A stretch of 64,000 nucleotides of DNA from Diprion similis. Its lineage: Eukaryota; Arthropoda; Insecta; Hymenoptera; Diprionidae. The notes below the pieces were generated by a model, which was not told where the DNA came from, ran no database searches, and was given only the letters and a program-made list of their open reading frames with translations. The stretch is taken from NCBI RefSeq assembly GCF_021155765.1, contig NC_060106.1:20424031-20488030 (forward strand), in the 5' to 3' direction. A program made the position numbers and the translations under genes. This document shows positions 4,603 through 39,532 of this stretch, piece by piece. Every line of letters starts with the position of its first letter. Position 1 is the stretch's first letter.

Positions 4603-4643
<41 letters not shown>

Positions 4644-12020: not shown

Positions 12021-14387
12021 TCACGAAGGCGTCATTTCAGGAACGCTCAGAATGTCGTTTCTAGGAGCGAGAACGCAAATCATGATAAGGTAGGTAAACA
12101 GCACGATGATAAAAGACAGTCGGTCTAGAATAGTGGCGAGATTTTGCCACACGTTTGACTTCTCGGAGTAGACGTTGTCCGAAAAAACCTTGGCGTCTGC
12201 AGATCCTGCATTGGCCTCCTCCGCTCCAAGTGACCTGGAAGCTTTAGGTCTCAAAATCGTCAGCAGGATCAACTGGCCAGCCCTGCTTTCCAGGATGGTG
12301 GATGTCGTGGTTTCCAACCAGACAGGAGTGCTGGCCGATATTTCTCCAAGCTGGCGCAGGACGACGGTCAATAAGAGGGCGAAGGTGGCTGCGATCATCG
12401 AGCTCTGATGGAAGAAGACTGAAAATTTTCAGCATTGTAACACCATCCATTATTGAAATACGTCTAATTTGACCGAAAATATACGTTAAAGTTATCGATG
12501 CTCACGTATCGAGGGCGTGCTCGAACCGTTGAAAGGCACTTGCCAAATCACGTCCGAGATACAGATTAAATGGCAGATCAGGTTGAGGACTGCCACTATC
12601 AATCGTTCTGGGTAGTTTGGATTCAACCAGAGCACAGTTAAAGTCACAATGATTAGCACTGGAATGAAATTACACATGTGTTATGTAAGATGGATGCACC
12701 GCGTCTGGTCACTGCATCATTTGTGGCCACCTTTCGTAAAGTCCGTATTTATTAATTTGGCTGTCAATCTCTTCAATTAATCGATTATTCGTGATTGAAA
12801 TTCATCTCGGAGTTGGCCAGGTTTTTTTTATTGGATAATCAGTGTTAGCATCGATGAAATTGAACACCTCTGTTACCATTTGTGGCAGATATTACACGGA
12901 ATGAATACAGCCACAACTGGTAGGTACTAACGTCACTCAAACTGGTACGGCTGTACTAGTTAGACCGCATTTTCACACCGCGATAATTCGATTCATACTT
13001 ACGAACTGCTGGTGCGATTATAGTGACCTGCATCAAATTCGAGTGTCGTTCAATGATGACGTTATACATTATCGTTGGAAATGTGTAATTGGATTCCGTG
13101 AGTCCGTCAATTCTAGTGTCAGTGGTAAGTGACAGTAATCTCCACTCAGAACTGGGTACGAAATCGAATAAGATCTTTGCTGGATGCATGTAAATCTGTA
13201 AAAAACCGACGTTTTCTTTTTGTTTTCTTAATACAAACTATAGTTCGATCCTTTGTCAACGTTGCAAAATTACGTCACATGTGCACGCAAGAAATGTACC
13301 TCCTTCTCCATGGTGTGGTAATTTATTTCCTCTTTTTTATGCGTCCAGGAACCGAGAAGAATTGTACAATTGTGCCTGTCAAACGGCCAGTCCTGGTAGT
13401 TCGAAACGCAACTCACCGAATATTGGACCATTGGGACACAGACAACTGCTCCCATAAAATGTACCAAGCAGTTTGTTGTGTGAATTCCGTCGTTGCCCAT
13501 CTCCACGCTACGGAAGTATAAATAAAAGGATTTCGTTAACGTAATCGAAGTTCGTTAAGTTATGTACAGAACGATAGTACAAGTACGTGTTTCACCGATC
13601 GATGGAAAAATTATACGAAATATGACTTACGAGTTGTAGATCGATAATGGCGGCATCCAAATTTCATCACTTCTAACTGGCATGAATTTTAAATCTCCGA
13701 AATCCGCACGTTTCCAACTCAGATAGTCGTCATACCACTCCTGAGAAAAATAAGATTACTTACCATTTTTCATTTATTTTATGCGTGAAAAAGCTTTTGT
13801 TAAATTGCACTAGATGTGAGATTTAGCGACACCGAGAAAAGCCATGAAGTTAAGGATTATTTCCAAACGGAAAGCCAATTCTTTTTTTTCCACATTCTGA
13901 AAAGTGTTGACTCGTTTACTCACCAATGACATCCAAGCGTGAAGCTTCAGGATATTTCCACGATCATACTGCAACGGCAAAGATACTTCACGTGAGTATT
14001 TGGAACGAGATTCGTTAACGGTGCAGAAAATTAATAATCATGCGATAATTTGAAACACCATAAAAACATCTTACGAAGTCGATGGATTGCGGAAAGAGGG
14101 TGACGAGCACCGAGGTTGTCGAGGTGTGATTGTCGGTCGGACGAACGGTTTTGTCGTAATTGCATAACAAACGCCTTCGTAGACGCGCAGTGTCCGAGTC
14201 GTCTGGTGCATCGCTGTTACAGTTGGCCTTTGCCTCAACTGTCACGGATTCCGGACGAAAAAAAAAGGTGTTTGAAATACTGCAATGTACTAGAGAATAC
14301 GTTTGTCGGTGCAGGTAACTCACCCGAGAATTTCGACGTACAAACGACGAGCAAGACCAATCCGAGGGCCGGTAATGGCGGATGCAT
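12021..14387 (-). CDS. divergent nicotinic acetylcholine receptor subunit, type 1 (intact)
   Basis: Subunit of a pentameric Cys-loop ligand-gated ion channel of the insect nAChR family, expected at the plasma membrane. Eight exons read in phase: 14324-14387, 14075-14238, 13924-13968, 13631-13740, 13300-13507, 13003-13195, 12506-12658, 12021-12418, giving 444 residues. Residues 1-21 look like a signal peptide. The Cys-loop runs C161-C175 with WPFDRHNC, including the N-C-T glycosylation sequon. Exon 6 holds the loop-C region, without the YxCC pair of alpha subunits, and the start of M1. Exon 7 holds the end of M1 and M2; exon 8 holds M3, a short loop and M4. The exon 5 donor (GTACAT) is weaker than consensus. 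It is the only intact type 1 copy; the relatives at 19.8 and 28.8 kb are broken. Assignment to non-alpha (beta-like) is by family knowledge; the ligand and partners are unknown. Confidence 0.85.
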
Positions 14388-14495
14388 GGCGGAAGAGACA
14401 CGCAGAGCTCAACTGTGAGAATAGTTTAACAAACTGATCCTGGATGATGAGTGAACGGGGAAACGTGGACGCCCATGAAATACGAAACTTACATA

Positions 14496-14526
14496 CGCCC
14501 CCAGGGCTGACCTCGACGAGCTTATC
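14496..14526 (-). promoter_or_regulatory. shared upstream module: GGGGGCG box plus GATA motif
   Basis: On the minus strand a GGGGGCG box (14496-14502) lies 109 bp upstream of the ATG and a GATAAG motif (14521-14526) lies just upstream of the box. The same pair recurs in front of the other intact receptor genes: 19631-19656, 24482-24524, 33198-33230, 36663-36688 and 39647-39665. The GATA orientation varies between copies. The spacing and persistence suggest a proximal promoter element. Confidence 0.5.
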
Positions 14527-15106
14527 TGTCGCCGTTTGATTCCGCGAGACTGCAGATACGCGGATATCCAGATCTAGCTGAAAATGCTTTGGTGATGGAA
14601 ATCCATTGGTATAACATCCCAGTCTTGAAATGACAGAAATGTATGATGGATGATAGGAGAGACGAATAAATGTATATCATAGACGTGTCACACAATATGA
14701 TCGTTCTATTTTTGGAACTTGTCATTTACCACGCCGACAAGACTGACGTTATACCTGAAACGATCGAAAATTTGGTCTACTGTTTCACTTTTTTTATGAA
14801 CAAAAAGAAAGTATCAGGAATATGAAAGAAATCAATTATCTCGGGATAGTATTTAGTGGTTTGTATCAATCGTATCATGTAGTTGTGATTGGATGATTGA
14901 AAAAATAGACCCATAACTTGTAAAGTGGTGGCTGAATGCCGTGATGAATTGATAGAAGGGTGACAAGGTTCTGCTGTATCGATTCAGATCAATTATTTAT
15001 TATCCATCATTGTAATGTGATTCCCAAAATTACACACGCAGAGAATCATCTGTCTAACTTTCTCGTATATGATTCGATGTAGAAAGTTCTTGTAGGTCTG
15101 TTGTAC

Positions 15107-15396
15107 TAGGACAAATTACGGGATCGTAATGACAGAACAAGTCTTTTTGAAGGCGCAAAGTGATCTGGGCATCATCCGCAATATTTTTACAGTCCAGAGC
15201 TGCGTCAACTGGTAGGGGTTTTAAGCGGAAGAAAAACACACTTGGAATGAATTAGAAACACAGAAGAAATATCCATCACAAAAATAGTGAATTGAGTAAG
15301 CAGTAAGAAAATATTCAACGATCGAAACTCACCAGGTAACTTTGTGGAATGAATGGCAAAGAGGCTGAACCCCAAGACCAGCAATTTTGTCTGCAT
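15107..15396 (-). pseudogene. type 3 nAChR remnant: exons 1 and part of 2 only
   Basis: Exon 1 (15333-15396, signal peptide with normal donor) and the first two thirds of exon 2 (15107-15208) are nearly identical to the type 3 genes at 22.1 and 30.9 kb. At about 15105 the sequence jumps to what, in the intact copy, lies beyond the 3' end of the gene (near 22036). About 2 kb holding exons 3-8 is therefore missing. Reading on would give only some 70 residues: a signal peptide plus the start of the ligand-binding domain. The upstream GGGGGCG box and GATA motif are still present (about 15510-15546), so it might still be transcribed. Confidence 0.85.
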
Positions 15397-16089
15397 GACA
15401 GACCAGCTTGCGCGGGCAACTCGAGTCCAAACAACGACGATGGTTTGATGAACAGAGCGACGCGCAATCGTCAAAATGGTGATGCAGACGTTGCGGTGAA
15501 ATCAGACTCTGGCAAACGCCCCCAAGAACGAATATTGATTGAACTTATCTGTTGCTGATTTGATTCATTGAAACCAGAGACGCAGAAATATCCGTTAATG
15601 AGAGAACATAAAATGCAGTGCTTTGCCGATAACTTTCATCGTAGACATCTATGGGTAACGCTCCTTTTATTGACCTCTAAATGGTTCCTTTTGTCGGTAC
15701 ATGAGATTTTGCGGTCAATATTAATGAGAACAATGTTGTACTTACACATCATAGAAAACACCAATCAGCTTTTATGTCTACGAACCTGAACCTGAGACAC
15801 CATATCACAACTCTTTTCAGAAAACTATAAATAATCATTTCCAAGTGCCACAGTGATTTTCATTGATCACCTTGCACAAGCTGAATCTAATTCTCACTGT
15901 TTCGCAAGAGCTCTTTCAAGGCACGTTATGTGGTGTGTGATATGGAGTGACCCTGTCATTTGGAGATATTGGTAGATTGTATAAAAACAGCTATTACATG
16001 ACTATGTATTCTCCAATTTCCACATTATTACATACTGTGGTCGATGGTCTGTAAATTCTTCTCACATAAATACATCACGAATATCTTAA

Positions 16090-16803
16090 GGGGCCATATA
16101 CACTTTAAACTCATAAATTCGAGGTGATTTTCAGAGGAACACAGTTGATAGGAGAATAAATTTTATTTATTGCAGTTTCACCCTAGTTTAGGGTCATTTT
16201 TGGGGATTATTTCCCTGGTTGAACAATATCCTAACTATATTACGAAGAGCGGTTCAGCCCCGGAGAGATGCCGTCGCGTTTTTGTTTCTACATCACGTTG
16301 TACATGAATGCGATGCCATCTTTCATCTGAAATGATTAGGATTTTGCGTGAATAAAGTGAACAGTTATGCGCATGGATTCCACCAACAATATTCGGAATT
16401 TAACCATTTTTTATCATTTTTTCCAGCCCATATTTAGCGGAGTACTTTTAATCACTGTGTTTTTTGATTGCCGAAAAAAATTCTAAATGAAATTGCTGGG
16501 TAGTGTTGGTGGAATCCATGTGCATAACTGTTTACTTTATTCGTGAAAAATCCCAATCATTACAGATGAAAGATGGCATCACAGTGATACACAACGTGAT
16601 GTAGAAATGAAAACGCGACGGCATCTCTCCAAGGCTGAACCGCTCTTCGTAATATAGTTAGGATATTTGTTTAACCAGGGAAACAATCCCCAAAGATGAC
16701 CCTAAACTAGGGTGAAACTACAATAAGTAAAACTTATTCTTCTATCAACTGTGTTTCTTTAAAAATGACCTCGAATTTATTAGTTTAAGGTGTATATGTC
16801 TCC
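16090..16803. mobile_element. 714-bp palindromic TTAA-flanked element, copy 1
   Basis: Two arms of about 300 bp are inverted copies of each other around a spacer of about 110 bp. Termini are GGGGCCATATACAC and, reverse-complemented, GGAGACATATACAC. TTAA flanks both sides (16086-16089 and 16804-16807). The corresponding place at 33767-33770 in the third block has one TTAA and no insert, which proves insertion with TTAA duplication. There is no coding capacity. A TTAA target is typical of piggyBac-type elements, but the ends start with GGGG, so the family is left open. Confidence 0.8.
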
Positions 16804-17142
16804 TTAAGATTCATTTCCGGTCTCGACGTATTCGTAAGTATCAATTCTTACGGTACAGGAACATTTCTTCCTATATAGGGGTTAGAGTCACGTTTGTTAA
16901 ACGCAAAATGTAAGTGGTGAACAATTTATAAATCTTGGATATTTTATCATTCGTAACATCTGGGTAAACAAATGATCAGAGGGTCAATATTTCGTCGATA
17001 CTCGTTCAAAACATCTTGACATTATGTCGAATAACAATTGTTCGGTGCAAGGTTATGGCCGCAAAACCTTGACCCTGTTTAACTCGTCGCTGTCGGTGTC
17101 CATTTAGCATTGCCTGCAGACCTTATAAAGACAAGTACTCCG

Positions 17143-19509
17143 CTAGAACCGGAAATCGAACGTAGGCACATCGGGTACCTCAAAGACGTCGTTCCTAGGT
17201 GTGAGAACAATTATCATAATGAGATATGTAAGTAAGACAATGGCAAAAGCCAGGCGATCTAGTAGAGCGGCTAAATGCCGCCAAACGTTGGTGCTTCCGG
17301 ACTTGATTTGAATCGAAGAATCACTCGAGGTCGTCAATCCAGCACTTTCTTCGTCTGCTCTGACAGCCGCAGCAGCTTTCGGGTCCAAAGTTGTTAGTAG
17401 GATCAATTGTCCAGCCCTGCTCGCCAGGATTGAGGAGGCAGCCGATGCCAACCAGTCAGGAGCGGAAACCGACAATTTCATCATTTGACGCAGGAGAATC
17501 GTCAGGAGTAGAGCAAGGCTGGCAATAACTATGGAACCCTGATGAAATACCACTGAAAATTGTCGGTATTACATGGTTAATTATAAATTAATTGTTCCGT
17601 CGGAAAAGTGTACTCATAACATCAACTACAATGAAAGAAATAACTATACGATTAATATATAAACATTGTGTCAGTATGAAAAATTCCGGACAACTGGTTG
17701 TGTATCGTAGTCAGGACGACTTGGTCTTTTCCGGTAACGGAAAGTGTCATAAAAATGTAACCATTGCCGTAAATGCGTCAATTTTATGCTGCTGGTCGAA
17801 ACGCAGACGAAACATTTACAATTAGTAGGACGAAATGTACAGTCGATCCTGTTGATAATACAGTGTCAACGCTATGTTCCGACGTTGTTTTTCTCGGACT
17901 ATACATATACCTACGTCGTTATTATTTATGTGTAAAGCTTACATATCGAGGGTGTGGTCGAACCGTTGAAAGGGACCTGCTCGTTCAAGTTCATGACACA
18001 GATTAGATTGCAAATCAAGTTGAGGACTGCCACTACCGATCGCTCAACGGAAATCGGGTCCAACCAGAGCACCGTTAAAGTCAGGACGACTAGCACTATA
18101 GAAATTAGAGACAGTACAGTGTTAGTCATTAGAGAACTCCTGTGATTTAAAACTCACACTGAAATCTAGCGTCATTCAACATGAAATTTGAATATAGAAT
18201 GGCAATAGATTATAATTACTCACGAATTGCAGGCGCTAAAATAACAGTTCGCATGGAGGCTGAGTTCCGTGCAATAGCGACGGTGTATATGATCGTTGGA
18301 AATGTGTAACCCTCAGCGATTCCATCCTCTACCTGAGTATGCTCAAGTGCCAGGAGCTTCCATTGGGCGTTGGGTGTAAAATTGAATACGCTTATACCCG
18401 GAAACATTTCCTTTTCGACAGAAGAAAATGTAGAAATGGACATTCAGTATGTATGTAGGTCGAGACTGAAGCGAATAACCACGAGCACTCTCAACGATTA
18501 CCAAAATGCAATTATGTTACCCAATGATTCATAGCGTGGTAATCTATTTCCTCCGCCTTATAAGCCCAGGAAGCAAGAACTATTGTACACTTGTGTCTGT
18601 CGAAGGGCCAGTTCCGGTAATCTGTGACGCAGTTCGAAACGTACTTTAAGCTTGCTACACAAAGTGTGTGCCCATTAGGGGATATCAAACACTCCGATTT
18701 CGGTATTCCATTAGGGCCCCTACTTTTTCCCGCGCTGCAAAATTACAAAAAGCAGAAGATTTAAATAGATAATGAAATCGGAACAAATCCCAATTCGTAT
18801 GAACCTTGCGTCGTGAGTCTTACGAGTTGTAATGAGCTATAGGTGGGACCCAAATTTCGTCGCTCGCAACGTGAAGTAGGGGTGAGTCTTTATCGGACCA
18901 CCTGAGTCCTCTGATTCGCCACATCTAAAACAGTTAGATTAATATTGTTCTTTTCATCTAGTGGTGGCAGAATTTAGGCACCATTTTAACACATGGAGTA
19001 ATTATTATCACCCAATCGTCATGCATGCATTAACACTTGCCATTGCCAACCAAGCGTGAAATACCATAGTATTTGAGCTTTCGTCCTGCAATAATAGGGA
19101 TTATACATCAGTGACGATGGCCAGGCCTTATCAAACCACAAAAATCTCCTGATGAATCAGCATGACGCCTTTAGTCATTATATCTTACGAAATCGATGAA
19201 TTTCGGGTACAGAGTGAGAAGGACACCCGTTGATTCACCAGGATTTCCGGGAGGAACAGTGGGATCGTAATCGCAAAGCAACCTTTTCTTCAGGCGTGTC
19301 GTGGCCGAAGCACTCGCTACATTACTAGTACAGTAGTCTTGGGCTGCGTCAACTGTCACAAATTACGGGGTGGACAAAGTATTATTTATGTTTCATCTTA
19401 AAAACACACGTTCGGAAAGCTAACGAAACGTAGGTTGGAACTCACCCCAAAATTTCGTGGTGTAAACGGCAAGAAGGTCGAGCACCAAGACTAGAAATTT
19501 CAACTCCAT
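17143..19509 (-). CDS. divergent nicotinic acetylcholine receptor subunit, type 2 (intact, GC donor)
   Basis: Cys-loop channel subunit of the nAChR family. Exons: 19446-19509, 19189-19352, 19041-19085, 18824-18924, 18521-18734, 18224-18410, 17943-18095, 17143-17552; spliced length 445 residues, in frame throughout. The layout is a signal peptide (about 1-21), a ligand-binding domain with Cys-loop C160-C174 (WPFDRHKC, glycosylation sequon lost), M1-M2 across exons 6-7, and M3, short loop and M4 in exon 8. M2 positions are V2', L6', N7', C10', C14' with E at -1' and 20'. There is no YxCC pair. The donor after exon 3 is GC (GCAAGT) where the sister genes have GTAAGT; GC-AG introns are usually spliced, so the gene is probably functional. 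The nearest relatives are the genes at 34.2 kb (intact) and 26.1 kb (broken). Confidence 0.83.
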
Positions 19510-19754
19510 GACAGAGGAGATCGTTGAAGTTGCTTAGAGCAGAATAGTGACCACGCATGAATAAACGAAGCGCCACATATGAGCCTCGAATGGTCAAACG
19601 CAGATGCTTGTGTAATTTGAGGCTAACAAACGCCCCCAGAAGTTGGTCGCGATAAGCTCACCGAATGCGTTATAATTTAAGTTGGTGAAACTGGAGATGC
19701 AAAATTCAATCATGGATCCAGATCCATCAACGACCACGATCATTGCAATCTACA

Positions 19755-21322
19755 TCGTTTTTGCGCGAGTACGCAAATCTTGATGTAGGTGTACAGCGCA
19801 ATGATAAAAGACAGACGAGAGTCTTTTGACGGAGTGGCGAGATGTTGCCATGCGTTTGATCTCCCGGAGTAGACGTTGTCCGCAGAAAACTTTGCGTCCG
19901 CTAATCCGGCAATGGCCTCGTTCGCTCCAAAGTGACCCGAAAACTCTAGGTGAGTTTGGACAGAAGATGGATGCACCGCGTCTGGTCACTGCATCATTTG
20001 TGGCCACCTTTCGTAAAGTCCGTATTTATTAATTTGGCTGTCAATCTCTTCAATTAATCGATTATTCGTGATTGAAATTCATCTCGGAGTTGGCCAGGTT
20101 TGTTATTGGATAATCAGTGTTAGCATCGATGAAATTGAACACCTCTGTTACCATTTATGGCAGATATTACACGGAATTAATACAGCCACAACTGGTAGGT
20201 ACTAACGTCACTCAAACTGGTACGGCTTTTCTAGTTAGACCGCATTTTCACACCGCGATAATTCGATTCATACTTACGAACTGCTGGTGCGATTATAGTG
20301 ACCAGCATCAAATTCGAGTGTCGTTCAATGATGATGTATAAAGTACACTATCAAGAATAGTGTAAATTCAAATTATTAGGTGGATTGAAAAATTAACGAC
20401 GGAGCCAGGATTCGAACCTGGTATCTAGAGATGCTTTGCCGGCGACTTACTCCAGTAGACCACCTAGCCGCCCTGACCCCAGTGTCATTAATTTCTCTTA
20501 TCAACCTATGTATTCGCATTTTTTCGAAATTCAAAAAAAAGTTATACACTATCGTTGGAAATGGGAAATTGGATTCCGTGAGTCCGTCAATTTTTGTGTC
20601 AGTGGTAAGTGACAGCAGTCTCCACTCTGAACTGGGTAGAAAATCGAATGAGGCCTTTGCTGGAGCCGTCCAATTCAAATATTCGTCGTGCCATTCCTGA
20701 AGAAAAGTATTGTTATTCAACATTTTTCCTTTATGGAAAAATATGCGTTGGAGGCAAAATTTACCGACACTGACGAGAGCCATGAAGTTAAGGATTATTT
20801 CCAAGTGGAAAGTCATTTCTTTTTCTCCACATTCTGAAATATGTTCACTCGTTCACTCATCAATGACATCCAACCGTGAACCTTCAAGGTATTTCCTCGA
20901 TCGTACTGCAACGGCAAAGATACTTCACGTGAGTATTCGGAACGAGATTCGTCAACGGCGCAGAAAATTAATAATCATGCGATAATTTCAAACATCATGA
21001 AGACTTATTGCGAAGTCAATGGATTGTGGAAAGAGGGTGACGAGTGGCAATGTGGTCGAGATGTGATTGACGGTCAGACGTACAGTTTTGTCGTAATTGC
21101 ATGACAAACGCCTTCGTAGGTGCAAAGGAATCGAGCTGTATGGCACACCGCTGTTACAGTTGGCAGTTGCCTCACCTGGCACGGATTCCAGAGGAAAACA
21201 ATACGTTAGAAATAGTGCGGTGCACTAGCGAATATATTTGTTGGTAAAGGTAACTCACCCAAGAATTCCGACGTACGAACGACAAGGACAATCATTTCAA
21301 GGATCGGTAATAGCGGATGCAT
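19755..21322 (-). pseudogene. type 1 nAChR pseudogene with insertion
   Basis: Exon 1 (21259-21322), exon 2 (21012-21175) and exon 3 align to the intact type 1 gene at 12.0 kb. Damage: the exon 2 donor is GCAATA and the exon 3 donor is ATGAGT. The start of exon 4 is fused directly to exon 6, so the Cys-loop exon is gone. A 192-bp insertion (20353-20544) splits exon 6. M1-end, M2 and M3 are deleted, leaving only an M4-like remnant (about 19755-19955). The two internal deletions are shared with the pseudogene at 28.8 kb, so they came before the block duplication. The GATA motif upstream is altered to CTTATT. Confidence 0.88.
20353..20544 (-). mobile_element. 192-bp insertion with tRNA-like module
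   Basis: This insertion is absent from the aligned sequences at 13.05 and 29.33 kb. It is flanked by a direct repeat TACACTATC (20344-20352 and 20545-20553). On the minus strand, 20401-20472 looks tRNA-derived: an A-box-like TAGGTGGTCTACTGG, a B-box GGTTCGAATCC and a perfect five-pair T stem, but a poor acceptor stem. An eight-base A run near 20533 is on the wrong end for a standard SINE tail, so SINE is likely but not certain. A functional tRNA gene is unlikely. Confidence 0.65.
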
Positions 21323-22094
21323 GGCGGAAGAGACGCGCGGAGCTCAACTGTGAAAATACTTTGACAGACTGATCCTGGATGATAAGTAAAACAGGTACAC
21401 CTGGACGCCCACGAAATACGAAATTCATATACGCCCCCAAGGCAGGCTGCGACGAGCTTATTCATCGCCGATTTGCTTCTGTGAGACTGCAGATACGCGG
21501 ATATGGAAATCTGCAAATGCTTCGGTGGTAGAAATTCATCGCCATAACATCCCAATTTTGAAGTAACAGAAATGGATGGTGAATGATAGGAGAGACGAAT
21601 AAATGTATATCATAGACGTGTTACACAATACGCTCGTTCTATTTTTGGAACTTGTCATTTACCATGCCGACAAGACTGACGTTGTACCTGAAACGATCGG
21701 AAATTTAGTCTACTGTTTCACTTTTTTTATGAACAAAAAGAAATTATCAGGAATATAAAAGAAATAAATTATTTCGGAATAATATTTAGTGGTTTGTATC
21801 AATCGTATCATGTAGTTGTGATTGTATAATTGAAAAAATAGACCAATAACTTGACAAGTGGTGGCTAAATGCCGTGATAAATTGATAGAAGGGTAACGAT
21901 GTTCTGCTGTATCGATTCAGATCAATTATTTATTATCCAGCATTGTAATGTGATTCCCAAAATTATACACGCACAGAATCATCTGTCTAATTTTCTCGGA
22001 TGTAATTCGATGTAGAAATTTTTCGTAGGTCTGTTGTTTCTGATTAATAATTCCACTTCCAACAACATGATCCTCTCCAAACGGTTGTTTGAAG

Positions 22095-24361: not shown

Positions 24362-25054
24362 GACAGACCAGCTTGCGCGGGCAACTCCAGTCCAAACAAC
24401 GACGATGGTTTGATGAACAGAGCGACGCGCAATCGTCAAAATGGTGATGCAGACGTTGCGGTGAAATCAGACTCTGGCAAACGCCCCCAAGAACGAATAC
24501 CGATTGAACTTATCTGTTGCTGATTTGATTCATTGAAACCAGAGACGCAGAAATATCCGTTAATGAGAGAACATAAAATGCAGTGCTTTGCCGATAACTT
24601 TCATCGTAGACATCTATGGGTAACGCTCCTTTTATTGACCTCTAAATGGTTCCTTTTGTCGGTACATGAGAGTTTGCGGTCAATATTAATGAGAACAACG
24701 TTGTACTTACACATCATAGAAAACACCAATCAGCTTTTATGTCTACGAACCTGAACCTGAGACACCATATCACAACTCTTTTCAGAAAACTATAAATAAT
24801 CATTTCCAAGTGCCACAGTGATTTTCATTGATCACCTTGCACAAGCTGAATCTAATTCTCACTGTTTCGCAAGAGCTCTTTCAAGGCACGTTATGTGGTG
24901 TGTGATATGGAGTGACCCTGTCATTTGGAGATATTGGTAGATTGTATAAAAACAGCTATTACATGACTATGTATTCTCCAATTTCCACATTATTACATAC
25001 TGTGGTCGATGGTCTGTAAATTCTTCTCACATAAATACATCACGAATATCTTAA

Positions 25055-25748: not shown

Positions 25749-26087
25749 TTAAGATTCATTTCCGGTCTCGACGTATTTGTAAGTATCAATTCTTACGGTA
25801 CAGGAACATTTCTTCCTATATAGGGGTTAGAATCACGTTTGTTAAACGCAAAATGTAAGTGGTGAACAATTTATAAATCTTGGATATTTTATCATTCGTA
25901 ACATCTGGGTAAACAAATGATCAGAGGGTCAATATTTCGTCGATACTCGTTCAAAACATCTTGACATTATGTCGAATAACAATTGTTCGGTGCAAGGTTA
26001 TGGCCGCAAAACCTTGACCCTGTTTAACTCGTCGCTGTCGGTGTCCATTTAGCATTGCCTGCAGACCTTATAAAGACAAGTACTTCG

Positions 26088-28510: not shown

Positions 28511-28754
28511 GACAAAGGAGATCGTTGAAGTTGCTTAGAGCAGAATAGTGACCACGCATGAATAAACGAAGCGCCACATATGAGCCTTGAATGGTCAAAC
28601 GCAGATGCTTGTGTAATTTGAGGCTAAAAGACGCCCCCAGAAATTGGTTGCGACGAACTCATCGAATGCGTTATAATTTGAGTTGGTGAAACTGGGGATG
28701 CAAAATTCAATCATGGATCCAGATGCATCAACGACCACGATCATTGCAGTCTAC

Positions 28755-30114: not shown

Positions 30115-30886
30115 GGCGGAAGAGACGCGCGGAGCTCAACTGTCAGAATAGTTTAACAAACTGATCCTGGATGATGAGTGAAACGGGGAAACGTGGACGC
30201 TCATAAAATATGAAATTCATATACGCCCCCAGGGCCGGCTGTGACGAGCTTATTCATCGCCGATTTGCTTCTGTGAGACTGCAGATACGCGAATATTGAG
30301 ATCCGAAAATGATTCGGTGATAGAAATTCATTGTTATAACATCCTAATTTTGAAATGACAGAAATGTATGATGAATGATAGGAGAGACGAATAAATGTAT
30401 ATCATAGACGTGTCACACAATACGCTCGTTCTATTTTTGGAACTTGTCATTTACCACGCTGACAAGACTGACGTTATACAGGAAACGATCGGAAACTTAG
30501 TCTACTGTTTCACTTCTTCTATGAACAAAAAGAAAGTATCAGGAATATGAAAGAAATAAATTATCTCGGGATAGTATTTAGTGATTCGCATCAATCGTAT
30601 CATGTAGTTGTGATGGAATGATCGAAAAAATAGACCCATAACTTGTCAAGTGGTGACTTAATGCCGTGATAAATTGATAGAAGGGTAACGATGTTCTGCT
30701 GTATCGATTCAGATCAATTATTTATTATCCATCATTGTAATGTGATTCCCAAAATTATACGCGCAGAGAATCATCTGTCTAACTTTCTCGGATGTAATTC
30801 GATGTAGAAATTTTTCGTAAGTCTGTTGTTTCTGATTAATAATTCCACTTCCAACAACATGATCCTCTCCAAACGGTTGTTTGAAG

Positions 30887-33077
30887 TTACAAAACTAAAT
30901 CGTCTTTCCGGTAAGGAAGAGCATCAGGTACCCCGTTAACGTCTTCCTTGGGTACAAGGACATGTATCATGATAATATAGGCTAAAAGCACAAAGGTGAA
31001 AGCTAGTCGATTCAGTAAAGTGGCTAAATGTTGCCACGCGTTGGAGCTTCTGGGATTAATTTTAACCGAGGGGCCATTCGAGCTCGCCAATCCAACGTTG
31101 TCTTCCTCTGCTCGAATTGGTGCAGCAGCTTCCGACTTCAAATTTATCAGTGGGAATGACCGGCCCGCTCTGGTTATTGCAGAAGACGTGGATAGCAGCC
31201 AATCAGGTGCGGTTACGGAGATTTCCTTCAACTGACGCAAGACGACCGTCAAGAAAAGGGCGAAACTGGCGATAACTATGGAACTGTGATGGAATACCAC
31301 TGAAAATCATGTCAGTAATGAACCACCGGACATATAGCGATCAGCGAAATGCAATGTTTCTTTATTCGTACGAGCAGGCAACTGCATCAACTTCATGCTG
31401 TTTCTCTTCGATGCCGATTCTTCTAGTGCATAGTTATACGGACAGATTGATGATTTTCTGCTTACATATCGAGGGAGTCGTCAAACCGTTGCTGGGCACT
31501 TGCCAATTCACGTCCATCACGCAAATCAAATGACAGATCAAGTTGAGGATAGCCAGTACCAACCGTTCAACGGCATCTGGACTTAACCAGAGCACAGTCA
31601 GTGTCATGACGATCAGAACTAGAATAAATTTTCGAATCATGTCCAAATCTCTGCGTCTTCGTAGACCTTTCAGGGTGTGATATACTCACGAACTGCCGGG
31701 GCGAGGATGGTGGTCTGCATAAAGGTTGAGTGTCGTTCAATTATTACGCTATATATTATCGTCGGAAAAGTGTAATTAACCTCTGGAAACCCGTCCAATC
31801 TACTAGCTCGGTCAATGGACAGCATCTTCCACTCGTTGTTAGGTATGAAATCGAAGAGCATTGATTCCGTCGAGTTGTACTTGTAAAAGGACAGGAAACA
31901 TGATGTAAGAAATACTTTTTCCACAAAAACGTTGTGTCTGGCACTTTGCAAAGGTGGTTCGTGATCACAATAACAAATTCAAATACTTTCGCACCACCTC
32001 CTATGGGTTCGCGAAATTCTTACCCACTTCACTTCGGGCACACCTGAAAAACTATGGAAGATATGCAGTGGCGTTACCTGTGTGATCATATGTATATAGC
32101 GGATGTCCTTCGCTTTGTAGATCCAAGAACCAAGAAATATTGTACAATTATGCCTGTCAAACGGCCAGTTCCGGTAGTCCGAAGCACAATGTGTGACTAA
32201 CTTCACCAGCGGTTGACAGATCGTATATCCATACATAAAAAGTAAACACTTCGTTTTTGGTATTCCGGTCTGTGTGTTGTAGCCAACCTCTGCACTGTAT
32301 AAAAATAAAGTAGTTATAGGTATAAAAATGCAGTTTGAATTCATCCTGGTCTCCATTAATCATTCAAAATCAGTCTTACGAATTGTAGAGAGTTATCGGC
32401 GGTGTCCAAATTTCATCGCTAGAAACGTACAGTCTAGGCACGTTTTTGGCATATTTTTTCGACTTCCATTGCAGATACTCATTGTACCAAGCCTGAAAGA
32501 CATTGTCTCTAATTTCATCTTATTCTCGTCATAAGCAAAGGTAGATGTGATTTTATCGGTTCTCATACTTCAACTTTATGAATAGGCACTTCGAAAACTT
32601 ACCATTCCCATCCAAGCCTGTAGTGTGAAGGTATTTGTACTGTCATCCTGAAACATGAAAGATTGATAAAACATTAGACTTCTACAATGTCTGAAAATAT
32701 AATGTATATAAGTATGATGTCTTACAAAATCGATGTATTTTGGATATAAACTGAGTGCCACCATCGATTTCCAACCACCATCAAATTTCGGACGAATTAC
32801 GGGATCGTCATGACAGAACAAGTCTTTTCGAAGGCGCAAAGTGATCTGGGCGTCATCAGCAATATTTTTACAGTCCAGAGCCGCGTCAACTAGCAGCGGT
32901 TTTAAGCGGAAGAGAAACGCGTTTGGAATGAATTAGAAACACAGAAGAAATATCCATCACAAAAAAAGTGAATTTAGTAAGCAGTAAGAAAATATTCAAC
33001 GATCGAAACTCACCAGGTAACTTTGTGGAATGAATGGCAAAGAGGCTGAACCCCAAGACCAGCAATTTTGTCTGCAT
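30887..33077 (-). CDS. divergent nicotinic acetylcholine receptor subunit, type 3 (intact, copy 2)
   Basis: nAChR-family Cys-loop channel subunit, 452 residues. Exons: 33014-33077, 32726-32889, 32603-32647, 32380-32492, 32078-32294, 31690-31879, 31466-31618, 30887-31299. The signal peptide is about 1-21. Loop-B GSW, loop-A DEIWTPP and Cys-loop C165-C179 with N-C-T are all visible. M2 matches the 22.1 kb copy. The M3-M4 loop is only about 75 residues, with an acidic EED cluster. The start was chosen from the signal peptide and the conserved phase-1 donor 64 bases downstream, shared by all loci. The exon 5 start (T then GCA GAG) was fixed by comparison with the sister genes, because a second AG five bases downstream would break the frame. 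A candidate AATAAA is at 30721-30726. Confidence 0.87.
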
Positions 33078-33766
33078 GACAGACCAGCTTGCGCGGGCAA
33101 CTCGAGTCCAAACAACGACGATGGTTTGATGAACAGAGCGACGCGCAATCGTCAAAATGGTGATGCAGACGTTGCGGTGAAATCAGACTCTGGCAAACGC
33201 CCCCAAGAACGAATACCGATTGAACTTATCTGTTGCTGATTTGATTCATTGCAACCAGAGACGCAGAAATATCCGTTAATGAGAACCCATAAAATGCAGT
33301 GCTTTGCCGATGACTTTCATCGCACACATCAATGGGTAACGCTCCTTTTATTGACCTCTAAATGGTTCCTTTTGTCGGCAAATGAAAGTTTTTAGTCCAT
33401 GTTAACGAGAATAATGTTATACTCACACATCATAGAAAACACCAATCAGCTTTCATGTCTACGAACCCGAAGCTGGGACACAATATCATAGTTCTTTTCA
33501 GAAAACTAGAAACAATCATTTCCAAGTGCCACAGTAATTTTCATTGATCACCTAGCAGAAGCTGAATCTAATTCTTACTGTTCTGCAAGAGTTTTTTCAA
33601 GGCACGTTGTGTAATGTATGATATGCAGTGACCCTGTCGTTTGGAGATATTGGTAGATTGTATAGAAACAGCTATTACATGTTTATGTATTTTTCATTTT
33701 CCATATTATTACATATTGTGATCGACGGTCTGTCAATTCTTCTCACATAAATTCATCACGATTATC

Positions 33767-33770
33767 TTAA
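33767..33770. other. empty TTAA target site
   Basis: ATCTTAAGATTCATTTCC here corresponds to the sequence split by the palindromic element at 16090-16803 and 25055-25748. It is the pre-insertion state, so the element entered after copy 3 separated but before copies 1 and 2 did, or this copy lost it precisely. Confidence 0.8.
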
Positions 33771-34180
33771 GATTCATTTCCGGTCTCAACGTATTTGCAA
33801 GCATCAATTCGTGCGGTAGAGAAACATCTCCCCTACATGAATTAAAATGACGTTTTTTAGTCCCAAATTGTAGGTGGTGAACGTTTTGTACACTTGACAT
33901 TTGTAAAATGATCTATCGTCGGATGAAAGTCCTTTGCGATTTCTGCAATACGTGTGAAAAATTTGGAAATCTGGAATATTTTATCATCCGTAGAACGTAA
34001 GTAAACGACTGATCAAAGGGTCAACATTCCTTCGATACTCATTCAAAATATCATCAAGTTATGTCGAACGAAAATTTTTCGGTTCAAGGTTATCACCGCA
34101 AAACCTTGATCCTGTTTAACTCGTCGCTGTCGGCGTCCATTTCGCACTGCCTGCAGACCTTATAAAGACAAAGTACTTCG

Positions 34181-36541
34181 CTAGAACCGGAAATCAAACG
34201 AAGGCACATCGGGTACCTCAAAGACGTCGTTCCTAGGTGTGAGAACAATTATCATAATGAGATATGTAAGTAAGACAGTGGCGAAAGCCAGACGATCTAG
34301 TAGAGCGGCTAAATGCCGCCAAACGTTGGTGCTTCCGGACTTAATTTTAATCGAAGAATCACTCGAGGTCGTCAATCCAGCATTTTCTTCGTCTGCTCTG
34401 ACAGCCGCAGCAGCTTTCGGGTCCAAAGTTGTAAGTAGGATCAATTGTCCAGCCCTGCTCGCCAGGATTGAGGAGGCAGCCGATGCCAACCAGTCAGGAG
34501 CGGAAACCGACAATTTCATCATTTGACGCAGGAGAATCGTCAGGAGTAGAGCAAGGCTGGCAATAACTATGGAACCCTGATGAAATACCACTGAAAATTG
34601 TCGGTATTACATGGTTAATTGTAAGTCAATTGTTTCATTGGGAAAGTATACTTATAATGTCAACTACGATGAAAGGAATAACTATACGATTCGTATCTAA
34701 ACATTGTGTCTGTATGAAGCATTCCGGATAACTGGTTGTGCAACGTAGTCAGGATGAGTAGATCTTTTCCGGTAACGGAAAGTGTCATAAAAATGTAGCC
34801 ATTGCCGTAACTGAGTCAATTTTATGCTCCTGGTCGAAAAGCAGGCGAAACATTAACAATTAGTAGGACGAAATGTACAGTCAATCCTGTTGATAATACA
34901 GTGTCAACACTGTGTCCCGGCGTTGTTTTTCTCGGACTATACATATACCCACGTCGTTATTATTTATGTGTAAAGCTTACATATCGAGGGTGTGGTCGAA
35001 CCGTTGAAAGGGACCTGCTCGTTCAAGTTCATGACACAGATTAGATTGCAAATCAAGTTGAGGACTGCCACTACCGATCGCTCAACGGAAATCGGGTCCA
35101 ACCAGAGCACCGTTAAAGTCAGTACGACTAGCACTGTAGAAATTAGAGACAGTAAAGTGTTAGTCATCACGAGAATTCGTGTGATTTAGAACCTACATTG
35201 AAATCTACCGTCATTTGACATAATACGATGGCAACAGGTTATAATTACTCACGAATTGCAGGCGCTAAAATGACGGCTCGCATGGAGTCTGAGTTCCGTT
35301 CAAGAACGACGGTGTATATGATCGTTGGAAATGTGTAACCCTCAGCGATCCCATCTTCTACCTGAGTATGCTCAAGTAACAGGAGCTTCCATTGGGCGTT
35401 GGGTGTAAAACCGAATACGCCTAGTTCCGGAAAGATGCCCTTTTTGAACAGAAGAAAATGTCGAAAAAAACATTCAGTATGTACGTAGGTCGAGACTGAA
35501 GCAAATACCCACGAGCACTCTCAACGATTACCGATATGCGGTTACGTTACCCAATTATTGAAAGCGCTGTAATTTATTTCCTCCGCCTTATAAGCCCAGG
35601 AAGCAAGAACTATTGTACACTTGTGTCTGTCGAAGGGCCAGTTCCGGTAATCCGTGACGCAGTTTGAAACATACTTTAAGCCTGCTACACAAACCGTCAG
35701 CTCATCAGAAAACATCAGACACTCCGATTTCGGTATTCCATTGGGGCCCCTGCTCCCTCCCGCGCTGCAAAAGTACATAAAGCGAAAGGTATAAGAAGAG
35801 AATAAATTCGGAATAAATACCAATTCGTATCAAACTTGCGACGTGAGTCTTACGAGTTGTAATGAGCTATAGGTGGGACCCAAATTTCGTCGCTCGATAC
35901 GTGAAGTATGGGTAAGTCTTCATCGGACCATTTCAGTCTTGTGTCTTGCCACAACTAAAACAATTAGATTGTTATTGTTCTTTTTCTCTATTTGTGGCAA
36001 AATTTAAGCACCATTTCAACACATGGATATTATTATCACCCAAGCGTCATGCACGCATCAACACTTACCATTCCCAACCAAGCGTGAAATACCATAGTAT
36101 TTGAGCTTTCGTCCTGCAATAATATATAAGGATTATACATCAGTCGGGATGGCCGGACTTTATCAAATCGTAAGAATCTCCTGATGAATTAAGTTGACGA
36201 CTTTAGTCATTGTATCTTACGAAATCGATGAATTTTGGCTGCAGAGAGAGCTGGACTTCGGTTGATTCACCAGGATTTCCGGGAGGAACAGTGGGATCGT
36301 AATCGCAAAGCAACCTTTTCTTCAGGCGTGTCGTGGCCGAAGCACTCTCTACATTACTGGTACAGTAGTCTTGGGCTGCGTCAACTGTCACAAATTACAG
36401 GGTGGACAAAGTATTATTCATGTTTCATCGTAAAAACATACGTTCGGAAAGCTAACGATACGTAGGTTGGAACTCACCGCAAAATTTCGTGCTGTAAACG
36501 GCGAGAAGGTCGAGCACCAAGACTAGAAATTTCAACTGCAT
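34181..36541 (-). CDS. divergent nicotinic acetylcholine receptor subunit, type 2 (intact)
   Basis: nAChR-family Cys-loop channel subunit, 445 residues. Exons: 36478-36541, 36221-36384, 36069-36113, 35854-35954, 35551-35764, 35253-35439, 34981-35133, 34181-34590; every junction is GT-AG and in phase. The signal peptide is about 1-21. The Cys-loop is C160-C174 (NWPFDRHKC, sequon lost). Cysteines C140 and C150 flank the loop-E hairpin. M2 starts after VER, with E at -1' (E276), N at 7' (N284), C at 10' and 14' (C287, C291) and E at 20' (E297). M3 and M4 in exon 8 flank a loop of about 70 residues rich in A, S and acidic residues. There is no vicinal cysteine pair in loop C. Upstream box and GATAAG are at 36663-36688. 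Confidence 0.88.
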
Positions 36542-37096
36542 GACAGAGGAAAACGTTGAAGTCGCTTAGAGTAGAATAGTGACAACGCATGAATGAACGA
36601 AGCGCCACATATGAGCCTCGAATGGTCAAACGCAGATGCTTGTGTAATTTGAGGCTAACAAACGCCCCCAGAAGTTGGTTGCGATAAGTTCATCGAATGC
36701 TTTATAATTAGAGTTGGTGAAACTGGAGATGCAAAATTCACTCATGCATCCAGATGCATCAACGACCACGATCATTGCAATCGACATCGCTTTTTGCGGA
36801 ATCATGCTGTTATTGCATCACATATACTTGTCTTGATAATGTTTCACGATCATAAGATGTAATTTTACAATTTTCACCGTATTATCATGAACTCGTTGAA
36901 CTACGATCATGCAATTAATAATAAATGACAAATATAACTTATGCCGATAAAGCCAAGGCTTATTGTTATCAACAAGGTTGTCTGACAAGTCAACGAAAAT
37001 ATCAAAAATCGATCATTTCAACTTGGTACAGTAGTTTGGTTGATTATCGCTGATCTACGCAAAGGGAACAAACCAGATTTACTTTTGACTCCTTTT

Positions 37097-37349: not shown

Positions 37350-37355
37350 TTTATT
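37350..37355 (-). terminator. candidate polyadenylation signal AATAAA
   Basis: AATAAA on the minus strand, about 75 bp beyond the stop of the 37.4 kb receptor gene; a normal distance for an insect 3' UTR. Position-based inference only. Confidence 0.45.
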
Positions 37356-37428
37356 TTAAAAACTTTCCATAAGATTCTTGTGTTCTTTGTCAAGCAAGAT
37401 ACCTTGCTAGATTAGTTGTTAGAATTTC

Positions 37429-39532
37429 TCAGGATTGTACAGGAAAATCAGGGGCATTGGCATTGATGTCATTCCACGGTGTGAGAACCCATATCATAAC
37501 AATGTAGGTGATAAACACACCGGCAAACGCTAGCCAGTCTATAAAAGTGATCAGGCGTTGCCACGCGTTGGAGCTTCCCGGATCATTTTCAGCTTCCGGA
37601 CCATCCGCATTTACCAATCCGGCGTCATCGTCCTCGGTTTCAAGCGCCACGAATTCCGATGGATCCAAATTCGTCGCCTTATTGTTAGGCAACCGAGAAG
37701 CCCTGCTTTTTGCCAACAATACCAAAGCGGTCTCCGACATTTCTGACATCTGACGGAGCATCACCGTCAGAAAAATTGTAACGCTAGCGATGATCATGGA
37801 ATTTTGATGAAATACCACTGAAATTTATTTGTATTAGAACTGGAATTCGCAGGGAACCTTATTGTTTTTCAATATCTCAGTAGACTCAACAATTTTGGAT
37901 AATACGAATATTATACAGTTGTACTTATCGTCAGCGTGGAAGTGCACGTGGTAGTAAAATATACTTACGTATCGAGGGCAAAGTTGAACCGTTGAAAGGC
38001 ACTTGCTCATTGAGATTGACCATACAAATTAAATGACAGATCAAGTTGAGGGCTGCCAATAACAATCGTTCCACGGACGTTGGACTTAACCAGAGTACCG
38101 CCAGGGTCAAGGTGATTAAGACTGAAATAGAATTGGGCTTTATTTCATGATTGGAGATGAAAAATTTCGAAAGATAACCGCACGTCATTACTCACGAATT
38201 GCAGGGGCGAGGATAGTGGTTTGCATATGGGATGAGTGTCGCTCGATAATGACACTGTACACCACCGAAGGAATCGTTAAATTGCGACTGTAGTACGCCA
38301 TCACATTTTCCATAATGCCAAAGGACACAAGTTTCCACTCAGGGTTCGGGGTGAAGTCTAAAGTCATTAGTCCGCCAAAAACAGTCTGTCAAAAATAAAA
38401 TGACAGTATTTACACACGAATTTTGGTAAGTTTTTTTCTTGCGATTGGAGCTGCGTTTTCCTAGTGTCACTTGACCGAAATGATCAAATTAAAAAATTAA
38501 AAACACGTCGTTCTCACACCTTTTTATCCTTAACGTGATACTTTATTTCATCATGCCTGTGAAACCACGAACCAAGTATAATCGAACAGTTGTGTCTGTC
38601 AAAGGGCCAGTTCCGATAGTCCGAGGCGCAGTGTGACACGTAATTCATCTCCACTACACAATGCAAATCTCCATTGGATAATAGCACACAATCCATTGGT
38701 GGTGTTTCAATATTCTCATAATTATCTTCCGCCCTGTGTTGAGAAACAACGGATAAAGAATTACCGGATGTAAACACATACATACTCGTTAAGTTATCGT
38801 TAAATATAATTGTTACTTGTTAACTTACGAGCTATACATAGTTAGAGGTGGCATCCAAACTTCATCGTTGTTAACGTGAAGTCTGTCGATGCCTTGGTTT
38901 CCACTTGTCCAACTTAAATTAGCGTCAGACCAACTCTGAAAGATTTGAACAGAATTTAACATACTTTTCGTGATGCTTATACTTATATTAAATTCATGTT
39001 GAACTTGAACAACTTACTAGTCTTATCCAAGTGCGGAATACTAGGATATTTTTACGATCCTCCTAGAATGTATAACAAACTATGTGATATCATGACGATG
39101 TGTAACGAGAACTGCGATAAAACTTATAATTATTTCGTATAAAGTAGTTAGCCATAGTGGAAGCTCACGAAATCGATGTGTTTTGGAGTCAAAGACATCG
39201 ACACGACCGTAGTTCCGTTGGTTGAAACTCCTACAGGATGACGCAACGGATCGTAATTACGCATCAGACATCTTTTCAATTGCACAGTAGCCGCAGGACC
39301 CTTTTGAAGAATCCTACAGTCCGAAGAGGCGTCGACTGAGATGCGTGGATTCCGGATGAAATTGAAAGGTGTTCGAAACAAAGGCGATGCCGTCATTGGG
39401 GAATATCACAAACAAGTTATTCAGATATTAGAAAGCAAAATCGTATGATTATCGTTTACGGAACTCACCGGAAACTTGTGCCATGTGTACGGCAAAAATA
39501 ACGACCCCCAAAAACATCTTTTTCGTCAACAT
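37429..39532 (-). CDS. divergent nicotinic acetylcholine receptor subunit, singleton
   Basis: nAChR-family Cys-loop channel subunit, 442 residues, outside the duplicated block and the most different from the rest. Exons: 39469-39532, 39169-39335, 39018-39062, 38829-38935, 38520-38733, 38196-38385, 37969-38121, 37429-37817. The signal peptide is about 1-21. The Cys-loop has NWPFDRHNC followed by S, so the sequon is kept. M2 begins VERLLLAALN and keeps N7', C10' and C14'. M3-M4 loop contains an acidic EDDD cluster. It has no YxCC. The upstream GGGGCG box is at 39647-39652 and a TGATAA motif at 39661-39666. It probably represents the oldest lineage at this end of the array. Confidence 0.87.

What the first reader, a model, noticed from the sequence alone, without database searches (positions are those of the whole stretch)
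12021..39532. Ten-locus tandem array of divergent nAChR subunits, six apparently functional
Ten related Cys-loop receptor loci on one strand within 27.5 kb, sharing exon number and phases. Most insects have a small nAChR set with only a few divergent subunits, so an array of this size in one place would be a lineage-specific expansion. The intact members split into three types plus a singleton, which suggests diversification after duplication, perhaps for a sensory, gut or detoxification role rather than classical synapses.
Basis: partly seen in the sequence, partly recalled or inferred. Interest (0 to 1): 0.8.

Follow-up and report, generated by a model that had tools for sequence, protein, structure and literature searches.

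The report
Triplicated cluster of odd nicotinic receptors
An insect chromosome carries ten side-by-side copies, about half of them still usable, of an unusual acetylcholine-receptor-like channel gene, made by repeated duplication of a three-gene block and sharing one promoter signature, so they are probably switched on together for a specialised job outside ordinary nerve synapses.

Summary
Ten nAChR-like loci lie on one strand: a singleton S, then a three-gene cassette A-B-C present three times head to tail. "Six functional" is generous. A1, B1, B2 and C3 are intact. A3 is open with one GC donor. S is open only if exon 3 is skipped. A2, B3, C1 and C2 are broken. C1 and C2 were cut by the duplication junction itself.

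All are non-alpha, with transmembrane segments that Pfam's TM model barely sees. The genome also holds an intact 11th relative, D, 2.1 Mb away, one alpha-type divergent gene, N, and nine core nAChR loci. Array + D form one clade (98/98) on the nAChR side of the split from anion-type loci (99/99), but outside N + core.

New: GGGGCGT stands 114-127 nt before all ten start codons and nowhere else in the window.

Best reading: a co-regulated expansion of divergent non-alpha subunits, channel exons constrained, ligand-domain exons changing fast, likely non-synaptic. Tissue, partner and ligand are untested.

The parts
37429..39532 (-). S: singleton divergent nAChR-like gene, 8 exon positions; E3 has no AG acceptor and ends in TAA, open only if E3 is skipped
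   Evidence: Exon models and splice sites; PF02931 E 2e-25 without E3
34181..36541 (-). A1: intact 8-exon gene, 445 aa
   Evidence: All donors GT, all acceptors AG, open frame; PF02931 E 4.7e-30
30887..33077 (-). B1: intact 8-exon gene, 452 aa
   Evidence: All donors GT, all acceptors AG, open frame
28766..30114 (-). C1: pseudogene; E4 runs into E6 with E5 (Cys-loop) lost, E7 and half of E8 lost, 3' end cut at the duplication junction
   Evidence: Exon search, lift-over and unit alignment
26088..28510 (-). A2: pseudogene; frame broken in E2 (1-nt deletion) and E8 (2-nt insertion), E6 donor changed
22095..24361 (-). B2: intact 8-exon gene, 452 aa, 95% identical to B1
19765..21322 (-). C2: pseudogene with the same deletions and the same cut 3' end as C1, plus about 200 nt inserted in E6
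17143..19509 (-). A3: open 8-exon gene, 445 aa, 89% identical to A1; E3 donor is GC (GCAAGT)
15109..15396 (-). B3: 5' remnant (E1, part of E2; promoter box upstream); rest deleted
12021..14387 (-). C3: intact 8-exon gene, 444 aa; only C copy with an intact 3' end
39646..39652 (-). GGGGCGT box of S; first base 120 nt 5' of the ATG
36662..36668 (-). GGGGCGT box of A1 (127 nt)
33197..33203 (-). GGGGCGT box of B1 (126 nt)
30223..30229 (-). GGGGCGT box of C1 (115 nt)
28631..28637 (-). GGGGCGT box of A2 (127 nt)
24481..24487 (-). GGGGCGT box of B2 (126 nt)
21431..21437 (-). GGGGCGT box of C2 (115 nt)
19630..19636 (-). GGGGCGT box of A3 (127 nt)
15516..15522 (-). GGGGCGT box of B3 (126 nt)
14495..14501 (-). 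GGGGCGT box of C3 (114 nt)
28766..36798 (-). Cassette unit U1 (A1-B1-C1); junction with U2 at 28766
   Evidence: Self-alignment and unit alignment
19765..28766 (-). Cassette unit U2 (A2-B2-C2), mosaic of U1-like and U3-like stretches; junction with U3 at 19765
12021..19765 (-). Cassette unit U3 (A3-B3-C3)
25048..25755 (.). Foldback (self-complementary) repeat element in the A-B intergenic stretch of U2
16083..16810 (.). Same foldback element in U3; U1 has the empty site near 33766-33771

Best explanation
SHOWN: the locus is an array of divergent, non-alpha nicotinic-type Cys-loop receptor subunit genes. A three-gene cassette (A-B-C) stands three times head to tail next to a singleton (S). The middle unit is a mosaic of its neighbours, as unequal crossing-over plus gene conversion would leave it. 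The breakpoint lies inside the last exon of C, so C1 and C2 lack the C gene's 3' end and only the outermost copy, C3, is whole. Between the A copies, channel exons (E7-E8) vary little while ligand-domain exons (E4-E6) vary about as fast as introns. Every copy keeps the same GGGGCGT box at nearly the same distance from its ATG. INFERRED: the intact members (A1, B1, B2, C3, probably A3, perhaps S) are expressed together from that shared promoter type. They act as non-alpha subunits, giving the complementary face (loop D Trp kept in A, B and C) and part of the pore wall of heteropentameric channels. Their partner would be an alpha-type subunit, most plausibly the single alpha-type divergent gene N, as honey bee alpha9 and beta2 dominate nAChR expression in one gland. 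The setting is non-synaptic, and the duplications mainly vary ligand response rather than the channel.
For: Identity: PF02931 matches 5 of 5 spliced proteins scanned. The best PDB profile hits are an orphan nAChR-like receptor (4.8e-37) and alpha7 (1.2e-35). In a 24-row within-genome tree array + D form one clade (98/98) on the nAChR side of the split from anion-type loci (99/99) (20-row version 100/97 and 99/100). Origin: shared junctions at 28766 and 19765, U1/U2/U3 mosaic, empty site for the foldback element in U1. Conversion: A1 and A2 are identical over E3, E4, I4 and E5 with 1 change in I3, inside flanks differing by 4-14%. Constraint: E7-E8 dN/dS 0.23, 0.26 and 0.13 (A1/A3, A1/A2, A2/A3) against 0.72, 0.75 and 0.73 for E4-E6. 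Non-synonymous changes are concentrated in E4-E6 (Fisher p 2e-10, A1/A3). Promoter: GGGGCGT 10 times in the window against 2.71 expected, 0 of 100 shuffles reaching 10. It is the only 7-mer shared at matching distance by S, A1, B1 and C3, 0 of 2000 shuffles, although between-type dS is above 1 in 13 of 18 exon-group comparisons. Partner and tissue: N has YYPCC in loop C. Honey bee alpha9/beta2 make up 93% of Nasonov gland nAChR expression (PMC10947401, passages).
Against: No expression data. Four of ten copies are broken and two more have splice-site defects. dN/dS over whole genes is 0.56-0.68, so constraint is weak. Synonymous changes are also more frequent in E4-E6 than in E7-E8 (Fisher p 0.004, A1/A3), so part of the contrast comes from conversion tracts, not selection; two of the three A comparisons include the pseudogene A2. 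B1/B2 do not show the contrast: E7-E8 0.60 against E4-E6 0.42, on few changes. M2 lacks the usual polar 2' and 6' residues, so conduction itself is unproven. In the 24-row tree array + D fall outside N + core (86/84), which does not favour N as their closest relative. Pairing with N rests on analogy. The promoter box may simply be inherited promoter sequence; its binding factor is unknown.
Confidence: 0.6

Rival explanations
1. Decaying duplicates: the cluster expanded by chance through unequal crossing-over and is now drifting to loss; the surviving open frames are recent and not yet broken.
For: 4 of 10 copies broken (A2, B3, C1, C2), S and A3 with splice defects; whole-gene dN/dS 0.56-0.68 between recent copies, E8 of B1/B2 1.01, E1-E3 of A2/A3 1.11.
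Against: Between-type dN is below dS in 18 of 18 exon-group comparisons; E7-E8 dN/dS 0.13-0.26 between A copies; promoter box kept in S, A, B and C; the related gene D, 2.1 Mb away, is intact with all splice sites canonical.
Confidence: 0.25
2. Environmental or gustatory chemoreceptors: like cephalopod chemotactile receptors, these subunits assemble (alone or together) into channels gated by non-cholinergic ligands, and the fast-changing ligand domain with a constant pore is the sign of a receptor repertoire.
For: Tandem array, no vicinal cysteines, ligand-domain exons of A changing at intron-like rates; precedent of chemotactile receptors, with diversifying selection in the ligand pocket (PMC11526382, passages), and of orphan Alpo4, the best PDB profile match, for which no agonist was found among the compounds tested (PMC10338036, passages).
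Against: No exon shows dN/dS clearly above 1; repertoire is small (4-6 usable genes); the only tissue hint from relatives is a gland, not a sense organ.
Confidence: 0.12
3. Auxiliary or silencing subunits: the proteins assemble with core neuronal nAChRs and tune or block them (for example by the altered M2), rather than forming their own receptors.
For: Non-alpha type; 2' and 6' M2 positions hydrophobic in A, B, C3, S and D, which should alter conduction.
Against: Transmembrane segments have drifted far from core subunits (Pfam TM model hardly sees them), which makes co-assembly with core subunits less likely; no data on neuronal expression.
Confidence: 0.1

Closest known systems
Divergent non-alpha insect nAChR subunits (honey bee beta2, Drosophila/house fly beta3, whitefly BTbeta2)
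   Same: nAChR ligand domain and Cys-loop, no vicinal cysteines, outside the core subunit set (PMC2064938, PMC4195910, PMC10906874, passages).
   Different: One or two divergent genes per species in those passages; here a ten-locus array plus D. No sequence comparison with them could be run.
Expanded nAChR families: Nasonia vitripennis (16 subunits; 12 alpha and 4 beta), Blattella (17), Periplaneta (19)
   Same: Large insect nAChR complements (PMC12700902 and PMC5034548, passages; the Nasonia paper itself is not held).
   Different: Nasonia's complement is mostly alpha with four beta in all; here the array and D are all non-alpha and the array is built from a three-gene cassette. Whether Nasonia's extra genes are in tandem was not seen.
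Cephalopod chemotactile receptors
   Same: Divergent nAChR relatives expanded in number that do not bind acetylcholine (PMC11526382, passages).
   Different: Ligand, tissue and function of the present genes unknown; no dN/dS clearly above 1 found.
Tick 'divergent histamine' Cys-loop cluster (His4-His11 tandem copies)
   Same: Arthropod Cys-loop receptor expansion by tandem duplication with long branches (PMC9219234, passages).
   Different: Those group with histamine-gated channels; these fall on the nAChR side.
Alpo4, orphan nAChR-like receptor of Alvinella (PDB 8bx5)
   Same: Best PDB profile match, E 4.8e-37; lacks common agonist motifs.
   Different: Different phylum; Alpo4 keeps the 2'T and -1'E pore rings (PMC10338036, passages), whereas here only -1'E is kept.

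Membership tests
Cys-loop receptor superfamily | Ligand-binding domain with a 13-residue Cys-loop | tested here: met
   C-x13-C with WPFD in A, B, C3, S and D; PF02931 in 5 of 5 spliced proteins scanned. C1 and C2 have lost the exon.
Cys-loop receptor superfamily | Four-helix transmembrane domain (PF02932) | tested here: inconclusive
   M1-M3 align to alpha7 and Alpo4 and M4 matches weakly, but PF02932 matches only 1 of 5 proteins, at E 0.081, and none of its 45 genome matches at E 0.001 lies in the array.
Nicotinic acetylcholine receptor family | Closer to nAChRs than to GABA/Gly/Glu/His-gated anion channels | tested here: met
   116 columns, 24 rows; split from anion-type loci 99/99. One of those loci, L023, was checked and hits GABA-A and glycine receptors; the other six are so labelled by the look of their Cys-loop only. 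PDB hits are led by nAChRs, with 5-HT3A among the next.
Nicotinic acetylcholine receptor family | Nested among other nAChRs | tested here: inconclusive
   Array + D fall outside N + core (86/84); with fewer outgroups N joined array + D with 46/55. Long branches, short alignment.
Nicotinic acetylcholine receptor family | Cation pore: glutamate at -1' of M2 and polar 2'/6' rings | tested here: inconclusive
   Glu at -1' kept in all types (VER/PER/SER), but 2' is Val, Ile or Leu and 6' is Leu (numbering by my own alignment to a core M2; the ring positions are recalled).
nAChR alpha subunits | Vicinal cysteines (YxCC) in loop C | tested here: not met
   Absent in A1, A3, B1, B2, C3, S and D; present in N and found by regex in 7 of 9 core loci.
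Divergent insect non-alpha nAChR subunits (beta2/beta3-like) | Outside the core subunit clade | tested here: met
   Array + D clade 98/98, core clade 94/91.
Divergent insect non-alpha nAChR subunits (beta2/beta3-like) | Orthology to honey bee beta2 or other named gene | not testable with these tools
   No insect nAChR sequences in the libraries used; no relatives of the genome held.
Chemotactile-type chemoreceptors | Expression in a sensory organ and gating by environmental ligands | not testable with these tools
   No RNA or physiology.
Chemotactile-type chemoreceptors | Positive selection in the ligand pocket | tested here: inconclusive
   A comparisons: E4 and E6 dN/dS 0.82-1.04 where computable, E5 0.47; E1-E3 up to 1.11; B1/B2 E4 0.42, E5 0.53, E6 0. 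Nothing clearly above 1.

The most novel reading that the evidence does not exclude
An insect counterpart of the cephalopod chemotactile receptors: a nicotinic receptor clade that left synaptic signalling, lost the acetylcholine signature, fixed a new channel (the invariant LNLIC(N/H)L(I/L)C M2) under one promoter code, and uses cassette duplication and gene conversion to vary mainly the ligand-binding exons, giving a repertoire of non-cholinergic ligand-gated channels in a gland or contact sense organ.
Probability: 0.12. Interest if true: 0.85.

Novelty: new variant of a known kind. Interest (0 to 1): 0.5.

Why it matters
Divergent insect nAChR subunits are reported from many genomes, but their function is little known, and nAChRs are the target of the neonicotinoid insecticides. 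An array with one promoter signature, a constant channel half and a variable ligand half makes the question testable: find the tissue that expresses them, co-express with N, and screen ligands. It is also a clean case of how a tandem-duplication breakpoint decides which copies live: here it cuts gene C, so only the outermost C is whole.

Tried and rejected
Considered and rejected: that the ten loci are false (unmerged haplotype) copies. They differ by up to 15% and more in places, carry different lesions and share junctions, on a contig whose end reads TTAGG; a residual assembly error in the 96-100% U2/U3 stretch cannot be excluded. That the genes are anion-channel relatives: not supported by the trees. 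Alternative acceptors for S exon 3 were read by eye in the sequence and run into stop codons.

Led nowhere: relatives in viral contigs (28 pattern matches, none confirmed) and genome contigs (14, none confirmed); Rfam (0 matches); the Nasonia nAChR paper is not held; the Nasonia re-annotation paper had no 'acetylcholine' or 'ion channel' passage. Paper searches listed no paper that, from its title or start of abstract, describes a tandem array of divergent insect nAChRs; only listings and the passages cited were seen, and no paper was read whole.

Rows dropped from the 24-row tree for having under 50 residues: three Cys-loop loci (C8, C11 near 1.04 Mb, C10 near 19.8 Mb), so these are not assigned.

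Full report
WHAT IS THERE. Exon-by-exon tblastn of one member against the window finds ten loci, all on the minus strand, and no convincing relative elsewhere in the window. Reading the strand in three frames gave gene models with eight coding exons: E1 signal peptide, E2, E3 (45 nt), E4 (101-113 nt), E5 (Cys-loop), E6 (loops F and C), E7 (M1-M2), E8 (M3-M4). Intron phases are 1,0,0,2,0,1,1. Every internal splice site of A1, B1 and C3 is GT/AG, and B2 lifts over intact. A3 is open but its E3 donor is GC. S has no AG before E3 and E3 ends in TAA; leaving E3 out keeps the frame but removes the loop D tryptophan position and the beta1-beta2 loop. A2 has frame breaks in E2 and E8. C1 and C2 share the loss of E5, of E7 and of half of E8. 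B3 is a 5' remnant.

HOW IT AROSE. Self-comparison and a three-way alignment show a cassette A-B-C repeated three times, 7.7 to 9.0 kb per unit. The C1|A2 and C2|A3 junctions are the same: C homology ends 46 nt before the end of its coding sequence and continues straight into sequence 257 nt upstream of the A start codon. So C1 and C2 lack the end of the C gene, and only C3, at the outer edge, is whole. Unit 2 is a mosaic. From the 3' flank of A to B exon 2 it is 96-100% like unit 3 (200-column bins), including a foldback element absent from unit 1. From B exon 6 to B exon 8 it is 97-100% like unit 1 (unit 3 has lost this part). An unequal crossover between unit 3 and unit 1 would give this; other stretches are mixed. 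A1 and A2 are identical over E3, E4, I4 and E5 with one change in I3, inside flanks differing by 4-14%, the mark of gene conversion. The foldback element is a dispersed repeat of this genome: at least 86 matching pieces, counted on both strands.

WHAT THE PROTEINS ARE. PF02931 matches all 5 spliced proteins scanned, while the TM family PF02932 matches 1 of 5 at E 0.081. S was scanned separately and matches PF02931 only. By profile, the best PDB hits are the orphan nAChR-like Alpo4 and alpha7. A1, A3, B1, B2, C3, S and D lack vicinal cysteines. By my alignment (loop positions recalled), loop A Tyr and loop B Trp are kept in all of these, and the loop D Trp in A, B, C3 and D but not in S. Between types the window proteins are 40-53% identical. 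Two extra cysteines in the loop E hairpin are kept in A1, B1, C3 and S and can be read in D; a disulphide there is an inference. The M2 core LNLIC(N/H)L(I/L)C is the same in all types. Glu -1' is kept, but 2' (Val, Ile or Leu) and 6' (Leu) are hydrophobic.

THE REST OF THE GENOME. The window lies at C2:20424031-20488030 of a 269-Mb assembly of 60 contigs; several contig ends read TTAGG. Whole-genome searches found one more close relative, D, 2.1 Mb away: intact, eight exons, all splice sites canonical, 44-50% identical to the array proteins. They also found N, a single divergent gene on another contig with an alpha loop C (YYPCC) and similar E6/E7/E8 breaks, and nine loci that I group as core nAChRs. 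A regex saw the vicinal cysteines in 7 of those 9; L006 and L009 showed none. With A1, S or D as query, every other match at E 0.01 or better lay in N or core loci (such lists are lower bounds).

TREES. A first tree of 20 rows, 116 ligand-domain columns, gave array + D 100/97, three anion-type loci split off 99/100, and N with array + D at only 46/55. Adding eight more fetched stretches gave 24 rows: array + D 98/98, anion-type loci split off 99/99, core 94/91, and N now with the core, 86/84. So array + D are on the nAChR side but branch outside N + core. Three further Cys-loop loci had too few residues and were dropped. L023 was checked and hits GABA-A and glycine receptors; the other anion-type labels rest on the look of the Cys-loop. 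Branching inside the family is unresolved apart from the A and B pairs (bootstrap 24-63, 31-75; 46 and 49 in a family-only tree).

SELECTION. Nei-Gojobori counts give dN/dS for E7-E8 of 0.23 (A1/A3), 0.26 (A1/A2), 0.13 (A2/A3) and 0.60 (B1/B2). For E4-E6 they are 0.72, 0.75, 0.73 and 0.42. Ligand-domain exons of A copies diverge about as fast as neighbouring introns outside the conversion tract, while E7 and E8 do not. The excess of non-synonymous change in E4-E6 of A1/A3 is significant (p 2e-10), but synonymous change is also raised there (p 0.004), so conversion history explains part of it. No exon is clearly above 1 (highest 1.11, E1-E3 of A2/A3). Between types dN is below dS in 18 of 18 exon-group comparisons, and dS is above 1 in 13 of 18.

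SHARED PROMOTER. GGGGCGT occurs ten times in 64 kb, all on the coding strand, once before each of the ten loci. Dinucleotide shuffles give 2.71 on average and at most 6 in 100. From its first base to the ATG it lies at 120 (S), 127 (A), 126 (B) and 114-115 (C) nt. It is the only 7-mer that S, A1, B1 and C3 share at a matching distance, and none of 2000 shuffles has one. D carries TGGGCGT at 136 nt (GGGCGT counted); S, C2, C3 and D have a second GGGCG 26-32 nt further on. The extended form GGGGGCGTWTGYNAG has 7 matches in 269 Mb, 6 of them here, and the reversed control has 24. That pattern was drawn from the A, B and C boxes, so its six array hits are by construction (A2, C1, C2 and S do not match it); it shows only that the extended box is rare elsewhere. 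Recent duplicates count as one event each, so the independent support is the agreement of S, A, B and C (and D in shorter form). The binding factor is unknown; a resemblance to Sp/KLF-type GC boxes is recalled, not tested.

MEANING. The identity, the cassette structure and the promoter signature are shown. That the intact genes are expressed together, assemble with an alpha partner such as N, and act outside synapses is inferred. It rests on the lack of alpha features, on the altered pore, and on the report that honey bee alpha9 and beta2 make up 93% of Nasonov gland nAChR expression (PMC10947401, passages). Larger insect nAChR families are on record (Nasonia 16, cockroaches 17 and 19; PMC12700902, passages), so size alone is not new. 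The cassette structure, the all-non-alpha expansion, the unusual TM domain and the shared box are the unusual points.

Noticed in passing
window 53407-58233 (minus): Gene with an RGS domain split over two exons (PF00615) and, upstream, a glutamine run followed by a cysteine string; looks like an RGS17/19/20-type gene (name recalled, not tested).
   Followed up: partly
window 16083-16810 and 25048-25755: A 0.7-kb foldback element, nearly palindromic, with many copies in the genome (at least 86 matching pieces counted on both strands); present in units 2 and 3, absent from unit 1, so it helps to order the units.
   Followed up: yes
L001 2872-8757 (G000 C2:22608871-22614756, minus): D, an intact 11th family member 2.1 Mb from the array and about 170 kb from the contig end.
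   Followed up: yes
L002 about 3200-6760: N, a single divergent alpha-type nAChR gene with YYPCC in loop C and similar E6/E7/E8 breaks; candidate partner.
   Followed up: partly
L006 and L019 (G000 C10 about 15.98-16.02 Mb): A core nAChR locus with no vicinal cysteines found and an alpha one lie close together on opposite strands, possibly the alpha7/beta1 neighbourhood reported in other insects (PMC2064938, passage).
   Followed up: no
G000 C2:13088530-13088544 (L005): The only match of the extended promoter box outside the array; no convincing nAChR exon in the 9 kb around it.
   Followed up: partly
upstream of S, C2, C3 and D: A second GGGCG box 26-32 nt after the first; S, C3 and D also share ATTTCATGGGCG; A and B lack it.
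   Followed up: partly
window 29228-29644 (C1): E4 runs in frame into E6 through a deletion, so a ligand-domain frame without the Cys-loop stays open in this pseudogene; C2 has the same join with E6 interrupted.
   Followed up: no
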